Below are positions 7,408 to 24,266 of a stretch of 37,258 nucleotides of DNA, in pieces. Position 1 is the stretch's first letter. Each line of letters starts with the position of its first letter. Origin of the DNA: Fretibacterium sp. (lineage in GTDB: Bacteria > Synergistota > Synergistia > Synergistales > Aminobacteriaceae). A program made the position numbers and the translations under genes. The stretch covers positions 1 to 37,258 of the forward strand of contig JAAYOR010000030.1 of assembly GCA_012520235.1 (NCBI GenBank), given 5' to 3'. The notes under the pieces are model-generated. The model was given only the letters and a program-made list of their open reading frames with translations. It was not told the DNA's origin and searched no databases.

Positions 7408-7873
7408 TTCATTTATAAAAGCCAAGGGCTACCTTCTACAGGAGCAGAGCCTGTACAAAGCCTTAAGGACAATGGTCTCGCGCGAACTTGAGGCCATTGT
7501 CCTTAACTGTGACATGGAGGAGCTGTTAGCTCTTATTGAGGCTAAAGTGCCTCTGATCGCCCAACTGGAAAGCCTGGCAGAAGCCTGGCAAAACCTTCTC
7601 TCCGAACTGGACATCAGGGAGACTTATGGGACTGCTGTGTTCTGGCAGAAGTTTCTCACCCTTTTTCCCCCTGATCAAGCCGATTTCCTCTCACAGCGTC
7701 TCCTGGAGAATCGCGCCGCGGCAGAAAACCTGATGGAAGCTGAGGGCAAAGCGGAGTCTGAGCTCAGAAAGCATGTCGACCACCTGAGGGAGAAGATGCG
7801 CTCCATGAGCAGAGGACGTAAAGCTTTTATTACGTACACCAAAATGGGAGGAGCGCAGTGTGACGAACTTTAA
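7397..7873 (+). CDS. FlgN-like flagellar chaperone (probable)
   Basis: A 158-residue, strongly helical, mostly charged protein with no signal peptide or membrane segment. It starts at TTG (7397) behind GGAGGT and inside the 3' end of fliS, so translation is likely coupled. Its size, its helical character with leucines spaced as in FlgN (MEELLALIEAKVPLIAQLE) and its place after fliS suggest the hook-filament junction protein chaperone FlgN. FlgN proteins are poorly conserved, so the name rests on context as much as on sequence. Confidence 0.6.
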   Translation: MRDDSFIKAKGYLLQEQSLYKALRTMVSRELEAIVLNCDMEELLALIEAKVPLIAQLESLAEAWQNLLSELDIRETYGTAVFWQKFLTLFPPDQADFLSQRLLENRAAAENLMEAEGKAESELRKHVDHLREKMRSMSRGRKAFITYTKMGGAQCDEL

Positions 7874-9008
7874 AGCAGCTTTACGGCAAAAAGTTTCTCT
7901 GCTGTGCTGTCTTCTCTTTCTTTTTCAACTTCTTTTCGCCTTCCCCTCTCTCGCAGCAACCGCAGCCAATAAGGTCCAAAAAACGGCCAGCGCCGATGTG
8001 AACCTGGACGAGTTAATCGTCGACCCGGAGCTTAAAAAAGAGCGCCAGATCGGACGGCGTACCGTGGAGCAGATAGAGAAGGAATGGCCTCTCATCGCCG
8101 AGCCTGCCCGCCTGACTCGTTTGAAGCTGATCCTGAGCCGTCTGAACCCCTACATGGAGCGCGAGATCCCCTACGAGGTTCGCATCGTCAACACAGAGGC
8201 GATAAACGCTTTCTGCATCTCCGGAGGGTTTATCTTCTTCACGTCCGGTCTCCTGGATATCCTGAGCACCGATGCGGAGATCGCGGCTATCATGGCTCAC
8301 GAGATGATCCACGCCGATCAAAAGCACAGCCTCAGGATGGCTGCCAAGTCCAATAAAGTGACTTTAGCCACTTTGGCTGCCATGCTCCTGAGCGGAGGCG
8401 CCGCTGCTCCCATAATCCTGGCTCAGGTGGCTCAGGTGGCGATCACCAACTCCTACTCCATTGAGTTCGAGAAAGAGGCGGACTCCATGGGGCTGGACGC
8501 CCTCATCAAAGCCGGTTACCCTCCCTCCGCAATGCTGACGGTCATGGAGAAGTTCTGCAACCAGGAGTTGCGTCAGCCCATCATCGATTATGGCATCTAC
8601 ATGACCCATCCAGAGGCTAAGGAACGAGTGCAAAGCACGACGCAAAGAATGGAGGAGCTGGGGCTCAAGATCATGAGGAAACAGCCTCTGGGCGTCTTGC
8701 GCACAAAGATCGAGACAAGCAAAGGGCGTCTAACCCTGATGATGGACAAAACGCCCATCTGGAGCGGCAAGAACACGCCCGAAGTGCAAAAAGCTTTTGA
8801 GGCGACCCTCGCCATCCTGGACGAAAATTTTCAGATGGAGACAGCACCGTATGACCTGCGTCTTGAAGGAGACTGCCTTTTTCTGAAAAATATAATTCTG
8901 GCGCAGAAAACACCCGGTGCTGAAGACCTCTCCTCGCTGCGCACGGGCCTCCTCCAGGCTCAGGGGCAGGCAAAGAGAGACCATCCTATGGCCAAATATT
9001 TCCATTAG
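7860..9008 (+). CDS. M48-family metalloprotease, exported
   Basis: A 382-residue zinc protease. Residues 1-32 are a signal sequence (basic start, long hydrophobic run, then LAATA). The zinc-binding HExxH is HEMIH at 147-151, and the third ligand is the glutamate of KEADSMG (Glu206). The short hydrophobic, alanine-rich stretch between them is typical of M48 (BepA/Oma1-like) proteins. No TPR repeats are obvious in the C-terminal 130 residues. The GTG start overlaps the preceding gene and follows GGAGGAG. It likely handles envelope protein quality control. Its linkage with flagellar chaperone genes is unusual and may simply be co-transcription. Confidence 0.9.
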   Translation: MTNFKAALRQKVSLLCCLLFLFQLLFAFPSLAATAANKVQKTASADVNLDELIVDPELKKERQIGRRTVEQIEKEWPLIAEPARLTRLKLILSRLNPYMEREIPYEVRIVNTEAINAFCISGGFIFFTSGLLDILSTDAEIAAIMAHEMIHADQKHSLRMAAKSNKVTLATLAAMLLSGGAAAPIILAQVAQVAITNSYSIEFEKEADSMGLDALIKAGYPPSAMLTVMEKFCNQELRQPIIDYGIYMTHPEAKERVQSTTQRMEELGLKIMRKQPLGVLRTKIETSKGRLTLMMDKTPIWSGKNTPEVQKAFEATLAILDENFQMETAPYDLRLEGDCLFLKNIILAQKTPGAEDLSSLRTGLLQAQGQAKRDHPMAKYFH

Positions 9009-9133
9009 AAGCGGGCAGATAGAAGAAGCTAAAACCCCCAAAGAGCAGGAGAAGGCCGCAAAAACACATAGCCCTCTCTTGTTTTTTGAGAAATCGTTGA
9101 TTATCTCCTACGCATAAAGCGACCCATCACAGT

Positions 9134-9841
9134 TTATTTTTTCGCCCGCGCCGCCAGCGCATCCAGCTCCTGGAGAAGGGGCTGGATACGCTTATCCTGG
9201 GCCCTCTGCTTCAGAGCGTCCGAGGCACTGATCTTCTTTTTCCAATACTCTTCGTTCCTCTTGACGCTGATGCTGATAACGGAACCCTCCAGGGAGAAGC
9301 CAGCAAAGAGCCCCTTTGACATGGAGTAGCTGTAGATAGAAGCTTTTATCTGGGCGTCCGTAGCTGCCTCTGCCCGGCGTCCCACCGGGCCCGCCGCCAC
9401 CGCAATGTCCCCACCCAATTTCACCTTGCTGCCTAAAAAGGCCTCAACGCCCTTCTTATTTTTCACGACGAGAACCAGAGACACCTTCTGCGCTCCAAGC
9501 TGAAGCCCCAGAGACCCGCCCCCGAGGTTATAAAAGCTGGGCCCATACCATTTGCCCCCCTCACGGCGCAGGATCAGACCCTCCCCGTATGTTCCTCCGA
9601 CGACAAACCCGGCCTTGACCAGAGATGGCACAAAGGCGACCGCCTGAGCTCCGGCAATCACATCAGCCATGCTCTCCACATCCTCCGCCTTCGTCATGCC
9701 CCGCAGCACCTCAACGGAATCCCGAATCAGCTCGTCCACGGAGGCTGCCCATGCAGCCTTTCCTCCCATAGAAAGCACCATGCCCATCAAAAAAAGGAAT
9801 GCCGCATCCAGCCAGATTTTTGATGCTCTCTTGTACTTCAT
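9134..9841 (-). CDS. Secreted SYLF-domain (YSC84/DUF500) protein
   Basis: A 235-residue protein with a signal peptide ending near AWAA (about residue 33). The mature part matches the SYLF lipid-binding family: an N-terminal helix with ASVDELIRDSVEVLRGM, then IAGAQAVAFVPSLVKAGFVVGG, a tryptophan-tyrosine segment (GGKWYGPSFYNLGG) and the glycine-rich LGLQLGAQ strand. Bacterial members are thought to bind membranes or lipids in the periplasm; the exact role is unknown. The start overlaps the stop of the Ppx/GppA gene as ATGA, making this the last gene of the minus-strand operon. It converges on the M48 gene. Confidence 0.9.
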   Translation of the reverse strand: MKYKRASKIWLDAAFLFLMGMVLSMGGKAAWAASVDELIRDSVEVLRGMTKAEDVESMADVIAGAQAVAFVPSLVKAGFVVGGTYGEGLILRREGGKWYGPSFYNLGGGSLGLQLGAQKVSLVLVVKNKKGVEAFLGSKVKLGGDIAVAAGPVGRRAEAATDAQIKASIYSYSMSKGLFAGFSLEGSVISISVKRNEEYWKKKISASDALKQRAQDKRIQPLLQELDALAARAKK

Positions 9842-10893
9842 CCCGCTCTCCCTCTTCTCAAGTTTTTTGAATTTTTTTGAGTTTTTCCGTCCAGAGCACT
9901 GTCAAACATCTCCAGCAGAAGCCCATGACGGAGCCCGTTGATGCTCACAGTCAGAGCGGGAAGCTCCAGCGCCTCCAGAATACCCCGAACGATGCAAGCG
10001 CTTGCCAGAATAATGTCCGCCCTGCGGGGCGGAAGTCCGGGAATAGCTCTCCGTTGCTCTACGCTGCAGGAGGCAAAGAGCTCCACCTGCCCCTCAACAT
10101 CCGCTCGGGTCAGCTCCAACCCATTCAGTTTCAAAGGGACAAAGGAGACGGCCCCCAGTTTCACCGAGGCCATCGCGACAACCCCACCCCCCAGACCAAT
10201 GAGAGAGAGGGAGGAGACCGGGCTCAGTTCCGCCTTCAAAATGGAGTCCACGTAGCTCAGAGCTTCCTGCAGAGCACTCTCCGTCACGGGGTCCATGGAC
10301 AGAAACCGCTCCGTCAGACTCACTGCCCCCAAGGGGATGCTGAACGACCTTTCAATACTCCGAGGAGTTCCAAAGACAAACTCCGTGCTTCCCCCGCCTG
10401 TATCAAATACAGCCAAAGGTGAGTCCAAAGGTCTTGAACAGTCAGCAAAAGCACTGAGCGCCCCTCTCCAGGAGAGGCGGGCTTCCTCGGTTCCGGAGAT
10501 GATCTCAAGGACAAGGCCCGTCCTCTCCTGAATCCTGCGGGCAAACTCCTCAGAGTTCAACGCCTGACGCAAAGCCATCGTTCCCACGAGGCGAGGACGG
10601 CTACCCAGCGCCTCAGCCCTTTTTGCAAGACGCTCGATCACCCTCAGCCCACTTTGCATCGTCGCCTCGCTCAACCTGCCCTCTTGCATCCCCCTTCCAA
10701 GCCCCACCACCTCGGTCGTGTCCAAAAGGGTCCGCAGCCCTCCGGACACCCGACGTGCCACCCGAAGCTTGATGGAGTTGCTGCCAACGTCAAGGACAGA
10801 GCGGACCTCGCCCTCACGCTGTCGGCATGCCATCCGGTTTTTATCACGTAAAGGGCGACCATGAGGACGCTTAGTTCTACGTCGCTTTGCCAT
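9838..10893 (-). CDS. Ppx/GppA-family exopolyphosphatase or pppGpp phosphatase
   Basis: A 351-residue protein from the ATG at 10893, chosen for the GGAG 10-13 bases upstream; a longer frame reaches 10941. It carries the ASKHA-fold signatures of Ppx/GppA: VLDVGSNSIKLRV (phosphate 1), EIISGTEEARLSWRG, and DTGGGSTEFVFG (phosphate 2). It lacks the C-terminal HD-like domain of long Ppx proteins, consistent with the short form. Members hydrolyse polyphosphate and/or pppGpp, and sequence alone does not settle which. The first 30 residues are unusually basic. It overlaps the yibE/F-like gene by 17 bases and the SYLF gene by four. Confidence 0.9.
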   Translation of the reverse strand: MAKRRRTKRPHGRPLRDKNRMACRQREGEVRSVLDVGSNSIKLRVARRVSGGLRTLLDTTEVVGLGRGMQEGRLSEATMQSGLRVIERLAKRAEALGSRPRLVGTMALRQALNSEEFARRIQERTGLVLEIISGTEEARLSWRGALSAFADCSRPLDSPLAVFDTGGGSTEFVFGTPRSIERSFSIPLGAVSLTERFLSMDPVTESALQEALSYVDSILKAELSPVSSLSLIGLGGGVVAMASVKLGAVSFVPLKLNGLELTRADVEGQVELFASCSVEQRRAIPGLPPRRADIILASACIVRGILEALELPALTVSINGLRHGLLLEMFDSALDGKTQKNSKNLRRGRAG

Positions 10894-12058
10894 CCTGCTT
10901 CTCCGTTTCCGACTGGCGGCTATATCGTTCCTGCAGCACAAAAAATGAGGCTGTAAAAGGGATCGTCAACAACAAGCCCACCGTCCCGGCCAGGCTCTGA
11001 ACCAGCTCCTCCGCAATGTAAGGGTCGTTGAACAGGCCTCGGATCTCTGCACCGGCGTTGGTGATGAGCAGCACCGTAGCCATGGAAGAGCCGATGTAGG
11101 CCAAGATAAGCGTGTTGATCATGCTCCCCAGCATCTCACCCCCCACGTGCATCCCGGCATACCAAAGTCTCCGCAGCGGAATGTCGGGGTCGTAATCGAC
11201 CAGCTCCGCCATGGAAGCTGTAATCGATATTCCGACGTCAAGGACAGCTCCTATCGCTCCGATGATGACCGAGGCCAGCAGAACCCCTCTGATATCTATT
11301 CCCGGCAGAGTGGAGGCCAGGAGAGCGGCGCTCTCACCCGCAAGGCCCGTCAACTTCCACATGAAGACCATGACCACGCCCCACAAAAAGCCGCCGGTCA
11401 CTCCACCCAGGCTCCCAAGAAGCGCCACAGTGCGATAACGGCTCCTCCGAACGACGCAGGCCACCGTCGCTACGGAAGTTATAAGAGCGGCCGCAAAGCC
11501 CAGAGGGATAGGACTCCAACCGGCCACGATCAGAGGCACAACCCCCCAGAGCAGACAGAGGATCGAGATGCCCAACCCCAGAAGAGCCCGGAATCCAGAC
11601 CAACCTGCAAAGACCAGGAGCAGGGATGACGTGAAGGAGACAATCCCCGCGACAGCAGGGAGGCGAAAGGCGTCGGCAATGGAGTATTGCCTTGCTCCAT
11701 CCTCAAAGGAGTCCTGGACCAGAAGGTACCGCCCTCCCGGAGTCGGATCAACCCCCGTCCCGGCCAGGCGGGTCACCAGGAGATCGTGCGTCTCTCCTTT
11801 CTGCGCCCCGGTCAGCAGCCTGACGGTTAAAGGTCGCTCAAGCATCTGAAAAGTCTCTTCCTCTGCCGTATCTTCACCGGAAGAAGAGGGAACCTTCCGC
11901 TCCGCTCCGGCAGCAAGCAGATGGACAACCAAAGACTCCCCGGAATCCCAGTGTCTCAGGGTCCAAAAGTTCACGGCACCGTACACCGCCCAAGAGAAGA
12001 GCAGAGCTGCCAGAAGCCGTAGGAGGACCTGTTTGCCAATCAGGGAAAAACCTCTCAC
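10877..12058 (-). CDS. YibE/F-like multi-pass membrane protein
   Basis: A 393-residue protein beginning at GTG, which shares bases with the stop of the MoaD-like gene (GTGA). It has an N-terminal membrane anchor (about 8-30), an extracytoplasmic domain of roughly 100 residues, then six or seven hydrophobic segments from residue 135 to the end. The conserved YibE/F block GAIGAVLDVGISITASMAELV followed by GMHVGGEMLGSMINTLILAY is clear. The family is widespread in Gram-positive and related bacteria and its function is unknown. It sits in the minus-strand operon between a beta-grasp protein and a Ppx/GppA phosphatase. Confidence 0.9.
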   Translation of the reverse strand: MRGFSLIGKQVLLRLLAALLFSWAVYGAVNFWTLRHWDSGESLVVHLLAAGAERKVPSSSGEDTAEEETFQMLERPLTVRLLTGAQKGETHDLLVTRLAGTGVDPTPGGRYLLVQDSFEDGARQYSIADAFRLPAVAGIVSFTSSLLLVFAGWSGFRALLGLGISILCLLWGVVPLIVAGWSPIPLGFAAALITSVATVACVVRRSRYRTVALLGSLGGVTGGFLWGVVMVFMWKLTGLAGESAALLASTLPGIDIRGVLLASVIIGAIGAVLDVGISITASMAELVDYDPDIPLRRLWYAGMHVGGEMLGSMINTLILAYIGSSMATVLLITNAGAEIRGLFNDPYIAEELVQSLAGTVGLLLTIPFTASFFVLQERYSRQSETEKQDGKAT

Positions 12059-12324
12059 AGGACGTCCCCCCCTCTCATCGGCATCAGGCTCACCGTATCC
12101 CCGTCGGCCAGCTCTTTCTCAAAAACTCCATGCCGCACGGGAGCGTTGTTGACGAGGATGATAGCCCGAGTATCCTGGTCACCCCCCAGGATGGAGTCCT
12201 CAAAGCCTTTGCCGTAGAGGTCTATCAAAGCCATCACGACATCCATCACGCGCCGCTCCGAGAGGAACACCTCAGACGTCCCGGCCAGGTCCGCCAACTC
12301 TCCGAACAGCAGCACCTTAACCAT
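12055..12324 (-). CDS. MoaD/ThiS-like beta-grasp protein
   Basis: An 89-residue protein from the ATG at 12324, preceded by GAGGAG; longer in-frame starts run into the upstream gene. The start VKVLLFGELADLAG and the later AIILVNNAPVRHG...DGDTVSLMPMRGG follow the MoaD/ThiS ubiquitin-like sulfur-carrier pattern (compare LFAxLRE and DEVAxxPPVxGG). In canonical carriers the Gly-Gly is the very C-terminus, but here residues 85-86 are followed by Asp-Val-Leu. Activation by adenylation would need trimming, or the protein has another role. No MoeB, MoaE or ThiF partner is nearby. It overlaps both neighbours. Confidence 0.8.
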   Translation of the reverse strand: MVKVLLFGELADLAGTSEVFLSERRVMDVVMALIDLYGKGFEDSILGGDQDTRAIILVNNAPVRHGVFEKELADGDTVSLMPMRGGDVL

Positions 12325-12796
12325 CCAGCCTCTCCTCAGAGTAAGAGCCCTCCAGGGGCTCAAGGACCTCCACGTTTGGGCTCCCGAACCGAACCCACTC
12401 ACAAAAAGCTTCCTTTTGGTCGGGGGGCAGGCGTATCAACCAACGGACGGAGTCCGAGCCCAGACGCGCCATCCCCGCTTCCCAGGAGGCACTGACCACA
12501 GCTGCCCAAGGCAGCAGAAGCCGCTTCACCCGTCGCCCGAGGACACAGGTCTCCTGCTCCAGCCCCATTTCGCCCAGAATAAAAGCACGTCGATAGGTAG
12601 CAATGGAGAGACACAGCACCCCGAGGATCACGTAAAGCAGAAAAGCGCTCAAATCCCTCTGCCCGGCAGGCAGCAAAAAACGCCGTAAACCGTCACCCAA
12701 CAGGAAGACCCCAAATCCCAAGCCTCCCCAGAGGAAGAGCGCAGGTTTTCTGTACTCCTCTCTGAGGGGTAGAAGTCTTCCGGCTTCGTCTCGCAT
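12317..12796 (-). CDS. Small membrane protein with PH-like C-terminal region
   Basis: A 159-residue protein I do not recognise firmly. Two hydrophobic segments (about 18-36 and 49-66) form a hairpin. The remainder is soluble, beginning YRRAFILGEMGLEQ and continuing with RVKRLLLPWAAVVSASW. This order, two helices and then a beta-rich segment with a Trp after I/L-PW, resembles bacterial PH-domain membrane proteins. It begins three bases after the permease stop and ends overlapping the MoaD-like gene by eight bases. No function is assigned. Confidence 0.7.
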   Translation of the reverse strand: MRDEAGRLLPLREEYRKPALFLWGGLGFGVFLLGDGLRRFLLPAGQRDLSAFLLYVILGVLCLSIATYRRAFILGEMGLEQETCVLGRRVKRLLLPWAAVVSASWEAGMARLGSDSVRWLIRLPPDQKEAFCEWVRFGSPNVEVLEPLEGSYSEERLDG

Positions 12797-12799
12797 CTC

Positions 12800-13729
12800 T
12801 CAATCCCTCTCCTCTCGATGGAAGGGGATCCCAAGGGCAGCCGGAGCTCTCAAAAGGATGCTGCGTCCCTTGCCCACGGCAATGATAAGCAGAACCAGGA
12901 TCGTCATCGCATAGGGCAACATCATCAAAAGAGGTGCAGGAATAGGGGTTCCAGCGGTCTGAAGCCGAAGCTGAAAAGCCTCAACCCCGCCAAAGAGATA
13001 CGCCCCAAGCGCTGCCTGAAAGGGGTTCCAGAGGGCAAAGATGACCATCGCAACCGCGATCCAGCCTCTCCCTGCAACCATGCCCTCAGCCCAGAACTTG
13101 TTGTAGACGACCGACATATAGCCACCCCCCAGAGCAACCAGCCCCGAGCCGACAATGCAATAAAAATAACGGAGCCGGGCTACGGGGAGACCCATCGCAT
13201 CAGCCGCTTTGGGGTTGTCCCCTATGGCGCGCAAGTTCATCCCCGGCCGCGTGAAGTTCAGATAGACATAAAGGACCACCACCAGAGCGAACGAAAGGTA
13301 GACCATCGCATCCTGATTGAAAAAAACCCGTCCCAGGACCGGAAGCTCCGCCAGACCAGGCAAAGGGAAGGAATGCAGTCCTGATATCGCGACCCCGATG
13401 TGATTACGCCCCATCAGAGCGCTGGCCCCGGAGCCAAACATCGTCATGGCGAGACCGCACACTACCTGATTGCTTCCCAGGGACACGCACAGAAAAGCGT
13501 GCAGCAGGCCCAGGCATCCCCCAAGGAGGAAAGCGAACAAGAGCCCCAGCCAGGGGCTGCCGGTCGAAAGCGTCACGACAAAGCCTGACAAGGCTCCCAT
13601 CAGCATGATGCCCTCAAGCCCCAGGTTGGTTATCCCACTCTTCTCCATGAGGATCTCGCCCAAGGTCGCATACAGGATGGGCGTTCCACTGCGCACCGCT
13701 GCGGCCAGAATAGGCGTCAAGGTTTCCAT
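12800..13729 (-). CDS. ABC transporter permease, nucleoside/BMP type (NupQ/YufQ-like)
   Basis: A 309-residue inner-membrane permease of the RbsC-like superfamily (BPD_transp_2). The opening ILAAAVRSGTPILYATLGEILMEKSG and NLGLEGIMLMGA are characteristic of the second permease of BMP-family (purine nucleoside or related) importers. About eight hydrophobic segments are visible, together with the conserved GMNLRAIGDNPKAADAMG cytoplasmic loop that docks with the ATPase. It starts three bases after the other permease. The substrate cannot be fixed from sequence; nucleosides are the usual ligand of this subfamily. Confidence 0.92.
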   Translation of the reverse strand: METLTPILAAAVRSGTPILYATLGEILMEKSGITNLGLEGIMLMGALSGFVVTLSTGSPWLGLLFAFLLGGCLGLLHAFLCVSLGSNQVVCGLAMTMFGSGASALMGRNHIGVAISGLHSFPLPGLAELPVLGRVFFNQDAMVYLSFALVVVLYVYLNFTRPGMNLRAIGDNPKAADAMGLPVARLRYFYCIVGSGLVALGGGYMSVVYNKFWAEGMVAGRGWIAVAMVIFALWNPFQAALGAYLFGGVEAFQLRLQTAGTPIPAPLLMMLPYAMTILVLLIIAVGKGRSILLRAPAALGIPFHREERD

Positions 13730-13732
13730 CTG

Positions 13733-14794
13733 TTATCTCCCCCCGTCCCAGGAAATTTTGTACTTGTAGAAAAACTCCCCTCCCAGCACAAAGAACAGGA
13801 TCAACCCCTGGAGGATCGTGCTCGTCGCAACGGGCAACCCCATCATAATCTGGAGCGCATCGCCTCCGGCCATCAGAGCTCCCATCAGGAACGCCACCAG
13901 GAGACTGACCAACGGGTTGAGGTGCGAAAGCCACGCTACGATAATCGCCGTATAACCATACTCCGCCGTAAAACCGGCCTGAAGCCGTCCCTCCAGCCCC
14001 GATACCTCACACATCCCAGCAAGGCCTGCTATTGCCCCGGAGAAGAACATGACAAGGACCACACTGCGTTCGTAGTTCATCCCCGCGTAGTGGGCTGCAC
14101 GCGCGTTGCTGCCGATGACCTGTATTTCATATCCCCAGCGGCTCCGGCGGAGCAGGAACCACATGAGAAGCGTCAGGAACAGGACGACGTAAAGCCCCAG
14201 GTGGATGCGCGTCCCCCACAGGGTGGGCAGACGGGCCGAGTCGATAAAAGGCTTCGTCATCGGGAAGCCCAGCGAAGCGGGATCCCTCCAGGGGCCGTAG
14301 ACAAAGTACTCCAGCCCTCGGATGGCAATGTAATTCAGCATGAGAGTGGAGATGATCTCATTGACGTTCCAGCGCGCTTTAAGGACTCCGGCAAAGCCGG
14401 ACCAGAGACCGCCCAGGAGCATTGCGAACAGGGCCATGAGCCCCAGCATCGCAAACGGGTTCTCCATAGGGAAATACCGTACCGCTGCTGCGGCAGCCAG
14501 AGCTCCCATCAAGGCCTGTCCCTCAGCTCCGATATTCCAGAGCAACATTGTGAAACAGGACATGGTGGCCAGCGAGACCATCGCAAGAGGAAGAGCCTTG
14601 ACAATAGTCTCGCTGAGGTCATAGGCACTCCCAAAAGCCGAGGAGGCCATCACCGTGTAGGCCTTGAGGGGAGAGACCCCTTGGAAGTAGAGAAAAAGGC
14701 TCCCTATGGCGAAGGCCATGAGGACGGAACACACCGGCACAGTCACTTTCAGCCAGGCAGAAGGGACCAGTCTCTTTTCAATTTTAAGCCTCAT
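13733..14794 (-). CDS. ABC transporter permease, nucleoside/BMP type (NupP/YufP-like)
   Basis: A 353-residue permease, the first of the pair. After an N-terminal helix it shows GVSPLKAYTVMASSAFGSAYDLSET, FNIGAEGQ-like LLWNIGAEGQALMGA, and ARWNVNEIISTLMLNYIA, all hallmarks of this subfamily. The docking loop is IQVIGSNARAAHYAGMN. It has roughly eight to ten membrane segments. Its start overlaps the ATPase gene end by 11 bases, which ensures coupled synthesis. The associated lipoprotein binding component is not present in the window. Confidence 0.93.
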   Translation of the reverse strand: MRLKIEKRLVPSAWLKVTVPVCSVLMAFAIGSLFLYFQGVSPLKAYTVMASSAFGSAYDLSETIVKALPLAMVSLATMSCFTMLLWNIGAEGQALMGALAAAAAVRYFPMENPFAMLGLMALFAMLLGGLWSGFAGVLKARWNVNEIISTLMLNYIAIRGLEYFVYGPWRDPASLGFPMTKPFIDSARLPTLWGTRIHLGLYVVLFLTLLMWFLLRRSRWGYEIQVIGSNARAAHYAGMNYERSVVLVMFFSGAIAGLAGMCEVSGLEGRLQAGFTAEYGYTAIIVAWLSHLNPLVSLLVAFLMGALMAGGDALQIMMGLPVATSTILQGLILFFVLGGEFFYKYKISWDGGR

Positions 14795-16349
14795 GGCAAC
14801 ATTCCTCTTCTTTCAGGACTTCCGATGCCCGGGAACCAGCCATCATCAGCCCTATCTTCTCGAAAGAGACAGCGGATGGCTCAGCCAGGACTCCCATAAA
14901 CTGCCCCTTGAAGATGACAGCCAACCGATCGCTCATGGCCATGAGTTCGTCAAGGTCCTCGGAGACCAGGAGGATGGCGCAGCCCTGTTCACGCGCGCAG
15001 AGGATCTGCTCCCTCACGTAGCGCGTTGCAGCGATGTCCAGGCCCCAGGTGGGGTGCATGGCTATCAGCACTCTGAGATCTCTTGAGAGCTCCCGGCCCA
15101 ACAGCAGCTTCTGCAGGTTGCCCCCGCTGAGATTGCGGACGGGGGTACGGCCTGAGGGAACGGAGACGTGGTAATTGTCAATGATGTTGCGGGAGTGCTC
15201 CTCACAAGAGCTCCAGTCGATGACGCCATGCCGGGAGAACGGAGCCTGCCAGTAGCTGCGTAAAACGGAGTTGACGTTGACGTCCAAATCCGCCGCCATC
15301 CCAACCTGCTTGCGGTCGGACGGGACGTAATGAACTCCCCGATCGATGAAGGCACGCGGGGAGGCGTGAGTCATGTCCTCTTCCTGAAGATAGATTTTCC
15401 CCTCCGTCACAGCCCTGAGGCCCACCACAGCCTCGCAAAGCTCTCTTTGTCCGTTTCCGGCTATCCCTGCTACGCCCAGTATCTCATGAGGCCTCAGGCA
15501 GAAGGAGAGGCCCTCCACCGCAGGGAGCCCCCTATCATTCAGCACGGAGATGTTCTCCACCTCAAGGAGCTCCGGCCCCGGCTGAAGAGGGCTCTTGAAG
15601 AGGTCGATGGGCACCTTCTCTCCCATCATCATTTCGGCCAGGGCTTCCGGAGTCGTCTCGTTTGTCATCACAGTCCCCGCATTCCGTCCCTTGCGCAGTA
15701 CCGTGACGCGAGAGGTCTCGTTCATCACCTCATGCATCTTATGGGTGATGAAGACGATCCCATGCCCCTCCTCCTTCATCCGGCGCATCGTCTTGAAAAG
15801 ATACCCCGCCTCCTGGGGCGTGAGAACAGCCGTCGGCTCGTCCAGAATCAGAACCTCAGCGTTGCGATAGAGCATCTGCAGAATAGCCACCCGCTGCTGT
15901 TCTCCCGTGGAGAGCTGCCAGACGAACGCGCTGGGGTCGATTTGCAGACCGTAATGTTCTGATATCTCGGCTATTCGGTCCTGAATTTTTCTGCGAGGGA
16001 GAAAGAAACCCGTCCCCTCCAGCCCCAGGATCATATTCTCCCAGACCGTCTGAGTCTGCACCAGCATGAAATGCTGATGGACCATCCCAATCCCGGCTGC
16101 AATCGCATCCTTGGGCGAACGGAAAACTCTCTGAGTCCCCTTGATAAAAATCTGCCCTTTCTCCGGAGCGTAAAGACCATAGAGCACGTTCATCAAAGTG
16201 GATTTTCCGGCTCCATTCTCACCCAGGAGCGCGTGGACCTCTCCGGCTTTCACAGAAAAATCAACATCATCGTTGGCAGTCACTCCCGAAAAAAGCTTGG
16301 TGATCCCCCGCATCTCCACCAGCGGAGTTGTCCGAGCTTCCCCTTGCAT
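14784..16349 (-). CDS. ABC transporter ATPase with two nucleotide-binding domains (NupO/YufO-like)
   Basis: A 521-residue protein from the ATG at 16349, which follows AAGGAGGAGAGG; the frame is open to 16427 but lacks such a site. Domain 1 has Walker A GENGAGKST (43-51), signature LSTGEQQRV and Walker B VLILDEPTAVL. Domain 2 has the usual degenerate Walker A (GIAGNGQREL), signature LSGGNLQK and the GLDIAA segment. This double-ATPase design powers RbsA/NupO-type importers. Domain 2 carries HPTWGLD where PTRGLD is usual. An 8-base-arm palindrome lies 35 bases upstream and could be an operator. Confidence 0.94.
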   Translation of the reverse strand: MQGEARTTPLVEMRGITKLFSGVTANDDVDFSVKAGEVHALLGENGAGKSTLMNVLYGLYAPEKGQIFIKGTQRVFRSPKDAIAAGIGMVHQHFMLVQTQTVWENMILGLEGTGFFLPRRKIQDRIAEISEHYGLQIDPSAFVWQLSTGEQQRVAILQMLYRNAEVLILDEPTAVLTPQEAGYLFKTMRRMKEEGHGIVFITHKMHEVMNETSRVTVLRKGRNAGTVMTNETTPEALAEMMMGEKVPIDLFKSPLQPGPELLEVENISVLNDRGLPAVEGLSFCLRPHEILGVAGIAGNGQRELCEAVVGLRAVTEGKIYLQEEDMTHASPRAFIDRGVHYVPSDRKQVGMAADLDVNVNSVLRSYWQAPFSRHGVIDWSSCEEHSRNIIDNYHVSVPSGRTPVRNLSGGNLQKLLLGRELSRDLRVLIAMHPTWGLDIAATRYVREQILCAREQGCAILLVSEDLDELMAMSDRLAVIFKGQFMGVLAEPSAVSFEKIGLMMAGSRASEVLKEEECCHEA

Positions 16350-22207: not shown

Positions 22208-22355
22208 CTAAAATAGAAAAAAATATTATGTCATCTTCATCTTTCTCGCCTATCCTCCCGCTCGGAAAGGAGTGACCACCCCAGGCCAGCTTCTGAACTT
22301 TGCAGGCGCTTTTCGTTCCTACCAAACTTTATTTTTATGAGAGGAGTTCTTTGTG

Positions 22356-24266
22356 ATGCCGAGAAGATTTCTGAAAAAAACGTTGAGATGGACGCTTCTG
22401 TGGGCTGCGGTGCTGGCCTTCGCTTCCATGGCCTGGGCGGAACCGTATCTGTTCAATTATCACGGTTCCAACGCGGACATCCTGGACGGCAAGGCGGTGT
22501 ACGACGCGGCGGAGTTTACTCATGTCTGGATGTCCGTGGACGACGATACGGTGGCGACGGACGAACACTGGAATGCCAAGGGAAAGTTGACGGTTCTCGG
22601 GGGAAATTACTCCTTCTGGAACGGCACGAAGGATGAGGACGTTGCAGGCACCATCAGGACCTTCGATCTCCTCCCCGACTTTAAGGTCGGAGACGACTTC
22701 GTTTCCTACTTTCCGGCAGACGAGGAGGGTGAGGATATCGATTTCCGTGGGGCCGCTGACGACGGACTCAACGGCAAGGAGGTCCGGTGGGAGTTCCCTT
22801 CACTGCCGGCCCTGAACGGCAAGGCCAAGATCCCCACCTTCCGCAGCACGGCCAGGCAGCTTGGGAGCTACGTCCCCTACGTGGAGCTGGTCAAGTCTGG
22901 CTCTGACATCACGGGGGTCAGGTGGCGCATTGTCGACCCCAAGAACCCTGCCAAGGCTCTGCCTCTGAGCGTCAGGTCTAAGGTCCGGATCCGTGTCAAC
23001 GACCGCAGCAACAACAGGCATCATATAGGCGACTGGAAGGAATTTAAGGCGAACGAGGCCCCTAAAGGGATGGCGACGTTTGCGGCGCCCCTGGCCGAGG
23101 ACAAACTGAGATATGTGCAAGTACGCCTTATCGTCTACGAGGGGGACTCCCAATGCCAGTACCGCTGGTCCTTCTCCCCCCGTACTCAGAGTGACGCGGG
23201 CGTGGCGGACTGGGGCGACTTGAAGGAGAAGCCGTTCAAGCTGAAGGCGGGCGAGACCAGGACCATCAAGCTGCGCATGAAGGAGAATTTCACTGCGTGC
23301 TTTGGTTGGAAGAGCACCATCGTACACGACGAGACCGTTTTGAGCGCAAAGGGAACGGGGGTGGAAGTGATCTCTGGTGTTGAATGGCCGCATTTTGAGC
23401 TGAAGGGGCTGAAGCCCGGAAAGACGAAGCTGAGCGTCATCTACGTCGATTACATTGGTGAGGCCAGCCCCCGCTACAGCTCCGTCCCCGTCGACGTCTG
23501 GGTGACGGATGAGAAGGGCAACGTGCCGGTGGTTCCGGTTAGTCCGAATCTGCCTCAGACCTCGTCCGATGTTGAGGCGCAGCTCCCCGAGTTCACGGCC
23601 GTCTCTGCGGACGCCACCCCCGAGCAAAAGAAGGAGGCAGTTGAAAACACTGCCAAAGAAGTCCTTAAAGATAAGCTGCCTGCTTCCGACCTCACGGCAG
23701 ACCCGGAAACCGGCGCCGTAACGGCCTCGGAGAGTGCTGTCAAGGAGGCAGGAGAAAATGTCGTTCAGGATGATCAGGAGATCGCTGAGGTCAAGCCTCT
23801 GCCCATACTGAAGGTCTCCGTGCATACCAAGGGGAACGTCGTGGCTGTGGGTTTCTCTCTCAAAGGTTCCGACCTCTTTGCTAAGAAGGCGTCCGATGTT
23901 CAGCTCCTCAAGATCACCGGCCCCGGAAAGGGAGAGCTGCTGGCCTACACGTCAGGCTCCAATGCGGACGGTCATTTCACGGTCTTGGACGATGAGGGAA
24001 TGATCGTCTCGGACATCGCTTCGGAGAAATTCTACGTCCTCACCCTCTTCATCCGGGACGGAGGCAAGTTTGACCTTGACGGGGAAAAGAACGGCAGCGT
24101 GGCCGACCCGGCAGCGATCCTCTCTCTGAAAGCCAAAGACAAGGACGAAGGCAAGAGCGAGGACTCAAAAAAAACCGGCTCAAACGGCGGCTGCAACGCG
24201 GGCTTCGCGGGGGTTGGAATTGCTCTGCTCTCCGGAGCGGCGCTCCTCCTCCGCAAGAAGAGCTAA
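22356..24266 (+). CDS. Secreted Synergist-CTERM-anchored protein of unknown function
   Basis: A 636-residue exported protein, taken from the ATG at 22356; the adjacent GTG at 22353 is an alternative. GAGGAG lies upstream. A signal peptide covers residues 1 to about 29, ending AWA. The C-terminus has the sorting pattern: a Lys/Asp/Ser-rich spacer, GGCNAGF, a hydrophobic run, then RKKS. This matches the Synergist-CTERM signal, thought to be processed and anchored at the envelope. The middle (about 305-400) resembles a bacterial Ig-like fold (LKAGETRTIKL, then LKGLKPGKTKLSVIY). A Pro/Ala/Glu-rich linker (about 400-480) leads to a last beta-rich domain. The rest is unrecognised. It is a monocistronic unit with its own promoter and terminator. 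Confidence 0.88.
   Translation: MPRRFLKKTLRWTLLWAAVLAFASMAWAEPYLFNYHGSNADILDGKAVYDAAEFTHVWMSVDDDTVATDEHWNAKGKLTVLGGNYSFWNGTKDEDVAGTIRTFDLLPDFKVGDDFVSYFPADEEGEDIDFRGAADDGLNGKEVRWEFPSLPALNGKAKIPTFRSTARQLGSYVPYVELVKSGSDITGVRWRIVDPKNPAKALPLSVRSKVRIRVNDRSNNRHHIGDWKEFKANEAPKGMATFAAPLAEDKLRYVQVRLIVYEGDSQCQYRWSFSPRTQSDAGVADWGDLKEKPFKLKAGETRTIKLRMKENFTACFGWKSTIVHDETVLSAKGTGVEVISGVEWPHFELKGLKPGKTKLSVIYVDYIGEASPRYSSVPVDVWVTDEKGNVPVVPVSPNLPQTSSDVEAQLPEFTAVSADATPEQKKEAVENTAKEVLKDKLPASDLTADPETGAVTASESAVKEAGENVVQDDQEIAEVKPLPILKVSVHTKGNVVAVGFSLKGSDLFAKKASDVQLLKITGPGKGELLAYTSGSNADGHFTVLDDEGMIVSDIASEKFYVLTLFIRDGGKFDLDGEKNGSVADPAAILSLKAKDKDEGKSEDSKKTGSNGGCNAGFAGVGIALLSGAALLLRKKS

What the first reader, a model, noticed from the sequence alone, without database searches (positions are those of the whole stretch)
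12055..12324. MoaD-like protein with residues beyond Gly-Gly, in a transporter operon
The 89-residue beta-grasp protein ends Gly-Gly-Asp-Val-Leu. Sulfur carriers must expose the Gly-Gly. A short tail implies cleavage (known for QbsE and some SAMP-like carriers, trimmed by JAMM-type proteases) or a non-carrier role. No E1-like or MoaE gene is adjacent; the neighbours are a nucleoside-type ABC importer and a YibE/F protein.
Basis: partly seen in the sequence, partly recalled or inferred. Interest (0 to 1): 0.55.

Follow-up and report, generated by a model that had tools for sequence, protein, structure and literature searches.

The report
MoaD-like protein without working sulfur tail
A small ubiquitin-fold protein whose Gly-Gly looked like a sulfur-carrier tail is most likely not a carrier: the two glycines are coded by what looks like the ribosome-binding site of the next gene, and the protein is probably a small helper of the membrane protein made from that gene.

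Summary
In detail: an 89-residue ThiS/MoaD-fold protein (minus strand, 12324-12055) ends ...SLMPMRGGDVL and overlaps the yibE/F start by 4 nt. The tail is not a working carrier tail. Its three closest orthologues (47-53% identity) also precede yibE/F and have no Gly-Gly. The four form one clade (99/100) apart from all GG-ending relatives. Carriers have Gly-Gly at P+4/P+5; here it is P+3/P+4, then Asp. The glycine codons (AGA GGG GGG) form a strong Shine-Dalgarno-like site 8 nt before the yibE/F start; a related genome has GAG GAG GGG (Glu-Glu-Gly) there. The genome, 98.9% complete, has no detectable E1 and no JAMM protease. In the same family, eight carriers with real tails sit beside an E1, and beside a JAMM in the four loci I scanned. 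The gene is under purifying selection. Best reading: a small GG-less ubiquitin-fold family, translationally coupled to YibE/F, likely an accessory protein in the manner of RnfH. One unresolved point: this genome alone in its family (1 of 81) has a MoaE-like domain, and no other MoaD.

The parts
12055..12324 (-). 89-aa GG-less-lineage ThiS/MoaD-fold protein (stop at 12057-12055)
12067..12074 (-). Shine-Dalgarno-like site GAGGGGGG of yibE/F, inside the codons AGA GGG GGG (Arg-Gly-Gly); its end lies 8 nt before the GTG start
   Evidence: -10.4 kcal/mol; 8-mers this strong are 0.14% of the minus strand. The 16S 3' end used is the recalled consensus
12055..12058 (-). 4-nt stop/start overlap (GTGA) with yibE/F
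10877..12058 (-). YibE/F membrane protein (393 aa), downstream of the MoaD-like gene in 4 of 4 orthologous loci
12317..12796 (-). 159-aa protein of unknown family with hydrophobic segments; 45% identical homologue at the same place in G010, not seen in the other two loci
12800..13729 (-). ABC importer permease (BPD_transp_2)
13733..14794 (-). ABC importer permease (BPD_transp_2)
14784..16349 (-). ABC importer ATPase
9838..10941 (-). Ppx/GppA phosphatase, downstream of YibE/F here and in G010 and G071
   Evidence: G010 and G071 read by eye

Best explanation
A ThiS/MoaD-superfamily protein that has lost the carrier tail and works as a non-covalent accessory protein (subunit, assembly or stability factor) of the membrane protein YibE/F, with which it is translationally coupled. 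SHOWN: the fold family, lack of a conserved or in-register di-glycine, lack of E1 and Prok-JAB matches in this genome, one clade, constant linkage to yibE/F, purifying selection. INFERRED: that the Gly-Gly codons serve as the yibE/F ribosome-binding site, that the protein does not become a thiocarboxylate, and that it binds YibE/F. What YibE/F does is not known to me and was not established here. My split: not a functional sulfur carrier 0.88; acts with YibE/F, given that, about 0.7.
For: Orthologues in G010, G073 and G071 end ...SLMPLCEEGPE...SLMPLGDWDDASF...SLMPFGDENDV, each overlapping a yibE/F start by 4, 17 and 17 nt at the starts I took. One clade 99/100, stem 2.17, in 98% of 200 bootstrap trees; still 99 (SH-aLRT) with the last 12 residues cut off and six long rows left out. 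35 of 35 P-containing carriers counted by eye (E. coli MoaD among them) have the last Gly at P+5; one further row (L136) has it at P+6. The window has Asp at P+5. Glycine codons = GAGGGGGG, -10.4 kcal/mol, 8 nt before the start; G010 GAGGAGGG, -11.3, 6 nt before. Own genome: one ThiS-family protein besides a hit inside a RelA/SpoT-like frame, no ThiF, no Prok-JAB. G010 too has one ThiS-family hit and no ThiF over the cut-off. dN < dS in 6 of 6 pairs, including the pair of genomes without an E1. AF2 model pLDDT 83, tail 86-89 below 50; nearest folds SAMP1, MoaD, CysO, Urm1. Precedent: ubiquitin-like RnfH, TmoB and YukD are described as adaptors or assembly factors (PMC1949818, PMC1779556, passages).
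Against: No physical or genetic evidence of contact with YibE/F; co-location alone. 40 other loci of this YibE/F group lack the gene (by eye; one search finds only four such proteins in 185 genomes), so YibE/F does not need it in general. In the YibE/F tree the four hosts fall in two lineages, so losses or transfer must be assumed. G073 and G071 show no good Shine-Dalgarno in their tails (best -5.4 and -6.6), so the SD explanation covers 2 of 4; those two genomes also do have ThiF enzymes. G000 has a MoaE-like domain and no other MoaD. The genome is a 196-contig assembly, so an E1 in a gap is possible. The window's own profile match to moaD_arch runs to residue 86, i.e. through its GG.
Confidence: 0.62

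Rival explanations
1. It is a sulfur carrier with a 3-residue tail that a protease trims (QbsE/CysO/HcyS style).
For: A Gly-Gly is present near the end; tailed carriers exist in the family: L164, L173, L168, L169, L170, L174, L177, L178.
Against: All eight tailed carriers have a ThiF match next to them (36-66 nt between the Pfam matches), and a Prok-JAB protein where I scanned (L164, L173, L169, L170). Here the genome has neither. GG out of register; orthologues have none.
Confidence: 0.05
2. It serves as the MoaD of a molybdopterin synthase made with the MogA-MoaE-like fusion on contig C2 of the same genome, perhaps charged without a classical E1.
For: C2 carries moeA, moaA, mobB-moaC and mogA-moaE-like genes but no moaD or moeB; G000 is the only one of 81 family genomes with a MoaE match and the only one of the four orthologues with Gly-Gly.
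Against: The MoaE-like domain lacks the equivalents of E. coli MoaE His103 and Lys126 (their importance is recalled) and has relatives in only two other of 185 genomes, with no ThiS or E1 gene seen beside them. No E1. Register and tail as above.
Confidence: 0.06
3. It is an accessory protein of the upstream ABC importer (or of the 159-aa protein), not of YibE/F.
For: It lies in the same directional cluster as the importer in G000, G010 and G073.
Against: In G071 the importer is not upstream, while YibE/F still follows; the stop/start overlap with yibE/F is kept in 4 of 4; the 159-aa gene was seen in 2 of 4 loci.
Confidence: 0.15
4. Relic: a decaying former carrier kept only as the leader that brings ribosomes to yibE/F.
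For: Overlapping stop/start in 4 of 4; SD-like site inside the coding tail in 2 of 4; gene absent from the other loci examined.
Against: dN < dS in 6 of 6 pairs; 29 invariant residues among the four.
Confidence: 0.08

Closest known systems
RnfH family (GG-less ubiquitin-like; beta/gamma-proteobacteria)
   Same: ThiS/MoaD-related fold, no C-terminal glycine motif, in some genomes encoded with a membrane complex (PMC1779556, passages). Foldseek lists chain H of the Azotobacter Rnf complex 8ahx, TMq 0.45; that chain H is RnfH is recalled.
   Different: Partner here is YibE/F, not Rnf or SmpB/START; sequence is nearer to MoaD/SAMP1.
MoaD family / SAMP1 (TIGR01687, NF041918; PDB 2l52)
   Same: Fold and sequence along most of the domain.
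   Different: Below the curated cut-offs of both models; no conserved terminal Gly-Gly; no E1 in the genome.
CysO/QbsE/HcyS-type carriers (JAB + ThiF + carrier)
   Same: Residues beyond Gly-Gly, as in L164 and L173 of the same bacterial family.
   Different: Those keep Gly-Gly at P+4/P+5 with E1 and JAB beside them; here neither.

Membership tests
ThiS/MoaD sulfur carriers | ubiquitin-like beta-grasp domain of the family | tested here: met
   Pfam ThiS 28.4 bits over cut-off 22.5; AF2 model matches MoaD/SAMP1/CysO
ThiS/MoaD sulfur carriers | conserved exposed C-terminal Gly-Gly | tested here: not met
   Ends GGDVL; three orthologues without GG; Asp at the position of the last Gly
ThiS/MoaD sulfur carriers | E1-like activating enzyme (ThiF/MoeB) in the genome | tested here: not met
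   0 matches in own genome; 12 of 14 control genomes ring. Assembly 98.94% complete
ThiS/MoaD sulfur carriers | thiocarboxylate formed on the terminal Gly | not testable with these tools
   needs mass spectrometry
QbsE/CysO/HcyS-type tailed carriers | JAMM/Prok-JAB protease to expose or regenerate Gly-Gly | tested here: not met
   0 Prok-JAB matches in own genome; 8 of 14 control genomes ring; other proteases not tested
Molybdopterin synthase small subunit (MoaD) | MoaE partner in the genome | tested here: inconclusive
   A MogA-MoaE-like fusion exists but lacks two recalled catalytic residues
NCBIfam TIGR01687 MoaD family | score over the curated cut-off 49.5 | tested here: not met
   40.5 bits; orthologues 45.7, 43.6, 41.0
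GG-less ubiquitin-fold accessory proteins (RnfH as model) | ubiquitin-like fold without the terminal glycine, encoded with a membrane protein | tested here: met
   4 of 4 loci with YibE/F
GG-less ubiquitin-fold accessory proteins (RnfH as model) | physical association with the membrane complex | not testable with these tools
   needs co-purification
RnfH family proper | sequence membership in the RnfH family | tested here: not met
   No RnfH model among the Pfam or NCBIfam matches up to E 0.1

The most novel reading that the evidence does not exclude
In this one genome the YibE/F-linked protein has been taken back into sulfur transfer: with no E1, no other ThiS/MoaD protein and a rare MogA-MoaE-like fusion, it would feed an unusual molybdopterin synthase, its Gly-Gly exposed by an unknown protease and charged without a ThiF/MoeB-type enzyme.
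Probability: 0.05. Interest if true: 0.72.

Novelty: new member of a known kind. Interest (0 to 1): 0.3.

Why it matters
It gives YibE/F, a membrane family for which I found only passing mention in the held library (searches; one passage read), a candidate partner that can be tested by deletion and pull-down. It also shows a trap: a Gly-Gly at the end of an overlapping gene may only be the next gene's Shine-Dalgarno sequence read as protein, so a terminal GG should not be taken as proof of a sulfur carrier without orthologues, register and an E1.

Tried and rejected
Cleaved-carrier reading: rejected on orthologue tails, register, missing E1 and JAB. Own-genome ThiG hits: partial matches (123-224 of 247) to long frames; I read them as other TIM barrels and did not follow them up, so ThiG is shown neither present nor absent. 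The second ThiS hit in the own genome (C189) lies in a RelA/SpoT-like frame of about 800 aa and I take it as a TGS domain (recalled; no call names it). The first AF2 model, from one sequence, was poor (pLDDT 54.5) and was not used. Genome-contig scan: one relative, a Flavobacteriales protein ending exactly in GG. Viral-contig scan with A1: none. PDB sequence search with the MoaE-like domain: nothing useful. YibE/F papers: the prefix search drowned in unrelated words; whole-word YibE with 'membrane protein' gave 4 papers, of which I read one passage (PMC3924187); YibE with MoaD gave 0. PMC3227635 (CysO) was read in passages only. My profile missed eight ThiS-type proteins, whose tails I read apart. 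YibE/F loci: 44 examined, from 79 genomes with a match; the rest were not fetched.

Recalled, from no call: the 16S 3' end, which E. coli MoaE residues matter, HcyS/QbsE trimming, and that the genome is a Synergistota (a guess only; no call names the organism).

Full report
WHAT IS THERE. On the minus strand, 12324 to 12055, lies an ATG-started gene of 89 codons ending ...DGDTVSLMPMRGGDVL. It meets Pfam ThiS at 28.4 bits (cut-off 22.5) and NCBIfam moaD_arch at 40.5 bits, under its cut-off of 49.5. An AF2 model from two sequences has mean pLDDT 83, with residues 86-89 below 50; its best PDB matches are SAMP1, MoaD, CysO and Urm1. The gene lies between a BPD_transp_2/ABC importer with a 159-aa unknown protein and YibE/F, followed by Ppx/GppA and Ysc84 proteins. 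Its stop shares 4 nt with the GTG start of yibE/F.

ORTHOLOGUES. In 81 genomes of the same family, 14 (the window's own included) have a match to the protein. Three stand out: G073, G010 and G071 (52, 53 and 47% identity in the alignment). In all three the next gene is yibE/F and the overlap is kept at the starts I took (4 nt in G010, 17 nt in G073 and G071). None has a Gly-Gly in the tail...LCEEGPE...LGDWDDASF...FGDENDV. With the alignment of the four as query, 31 of 185 genomes of the phylum match; the four score 148-155 bits and the next 55.9. The four form one clade with 99/100 support on a stem of 2.17, and still do when the last 12 residues are cut and six long rows dropped.

THE OTHER RELATIVES ARE THE REAL CARRIERS. 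From 63 loci I recovered 45 distinct proteins, of which 38 end exactly in GG; the other seven are the four above, L164, L173 and L168. One of the 38 is a 22-aa fragment (L138) and one (L017) is from another phylum. Eight further ThiS-type proteins were missed by my profile and read apart: three end in GG and five carry 1 to 7 residues beyond GGG. Of 27 family genomes with a carrier that I listed, 21 have a ThiF on the same contig within about 3 kb; of the other six, four have a ThiF match elsewhere (one, G072, only partial) and two have none over the cut-off, both at most 80% complete.

TAILED CARRIERS IN THE SAME FAMILY. G009 (L164) and G073 (L173) have the classic set: a Prok-JAB protein, a ThiS-family protein ending PAIAGG+DGTWV or PAIAGG+GGICP, and a ThiF enzyme (with rhodanese domain in L173). 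Six more (L168, L169, L170, L174, L177, L178) end MGGG followed by 1 to 7 residues, beside a ThiF; Prok-JAB was confirmed in the two I scanned, L169 and L170. This is what a trimmed carrier looks like here. The window's genome has no ThiF and no Prok-JAB, at 98.94% completeness. G010, 99% complete, likewise has no ThiF over the cut-off and no other ThiS-family hit. G073 and G071 do have ThiF enzymes, but beside other carriers.

REGISTER. In the alignment, counted by eye, 35 of 35 carriers with the conserved proline (E. coli MoaD included) have the last two glycines at P+4 and P+5, as do the two tailed ones L164 and L173; one more (L136) is shifted by one, and three rows (L165, L168, L172) lack the proline. 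The window has Gly at P+3 and P+4 and Asp at P+5.

WHY THERE IS A GLY-GLY. The codons before the stop are CCG ATG AGA GGG GGG GAC GTC CTG TGA. GAGGGGGG pairs with the anti-Shine-Dalgarno at -10.4 kcal/mol and ends 8 nt before the yibE/F GTG; it is the strongest site in the 60 nt upstream. In G010 the same place reads GAG GAG GGG (Glu-Glu-Gly), -11.3 kcal/mol. Eight-mers as strong as the window's make up 0.14% of the minus strand of the window; 1 of the 17 other starts I scored has one as strong (labelled fliS); one of those 17 coordinates (labelled nadK?) was not a start codon. So the Gly-Gly is most simply the ribosome-binding site of yibE/F read as protein. Against this: G073 and G071 have no such site in their tails (best -5.4 and -6.6).

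SELECTION. dN is below dS in all six pairs (0.15-0.55 against 0.85-1.57, the latter near saturation). The protein is kept even in two genomes with no visible activating enzyme.

HOW IT MOST LIKELY WORKS. A cytoplasmic ubiquitin-fold protein made together with YibE/F by translational coupling and acting on it non-covalently, as subunit, assembly or stability factor. Published precedents are RnfH, TmoB and YukD, which the beta-grasp surveys describe as adaptors or assembly factors, and the 2006 survey says that most of its newly found ubiquitin-like families lack the terminal glycine (PMC1779556 and PMC1949818; passages only). The link to YibE/F rests on position alone. YibE/F itself is in 79 of 81 genomes, and among 44 fetched loci of its group only these four have the MoaD-like gene next door. 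In the YibE/F tree the four hosts fall in two lineages, so either the pair is old and was often lost, or it moved.

THE POINT THAT DOES NOT FIT. Contig C2 of the same genome has a molybdenum-cofactor cluster with MoeA, MoaA, a MobB-MoaC fusion and a MogA protein with a MoaE-like domain, without MoaD or MoeB. This genome is the only one of 81 with a Pfam MoaE match, and relatives of the domain occur in two others of 185, where no ThiS or E1 gene was seen beside them (by eye). Aligned with E. coli MoaE, Arg39, Arg104 and Lys119 are kept, while His103 and Lys126 are lost (which residues matter is recalled). It may not be a molybdopterin synthase at all; but that the single orthologue with a Gly-Gly sits in the single genome with a MoaE-like domain is a coincidence I cannot rule out as meaningful.

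VERDICT. Observation confirmed. Non-carrier reading supported, cleaved-carrier reading not. A small new GG-less ubiquitin-fold family tied to YibE/F; of modest interest.

Noticed in passing
L148 (G000:C2) 7549-11690, minus strand: Molybdenum-cofactor cluster with MobB-MoaC and MogA-MoaE-like fusions, but no E1 match and no other MoaD match in the genome.
   Followed up: partly
L182 1486-1860 and L183 1495-1857: Free-standing MoaE-like proteins in two distant genomes of the phylum, lacking the His103 and Lys126 equivalents of E. coli MoaE, with no ThiS or E1 gene seen beside them.
   Followed up: partly
   Followed up: partly
L168, L169, L170, L174, L177, L178: ThiS-like carriers ending MGGG plus 1-7 residues directly before a ThiF; PLP Cys/Met enzyme confirmed in L170 and Prok-JAB in L169 and L170 (others by eye); resembles the HcyS system (recalled).
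   Followed up: partly
window 12317-12796, minus strand: 159-aa protein with hydrophobic segments and no Pfam or NCBIfam match; 45% identical homologue in G010 at the same place.
   Followed up: partly
L138 (G089:C1): A MoaD gene that seems frameshifted: one frame holds the front of the domain, another ends in the GGG tail.
   Followed up: no
window 22353-24266, + strand: 637-aa secreted-looking protein with a C-terminal NGGCNAGF...LLLRKKS sorting-type tail; NCBIfam gives only a sub-threshold choice-of-anchor U match.
   Followed up: partly
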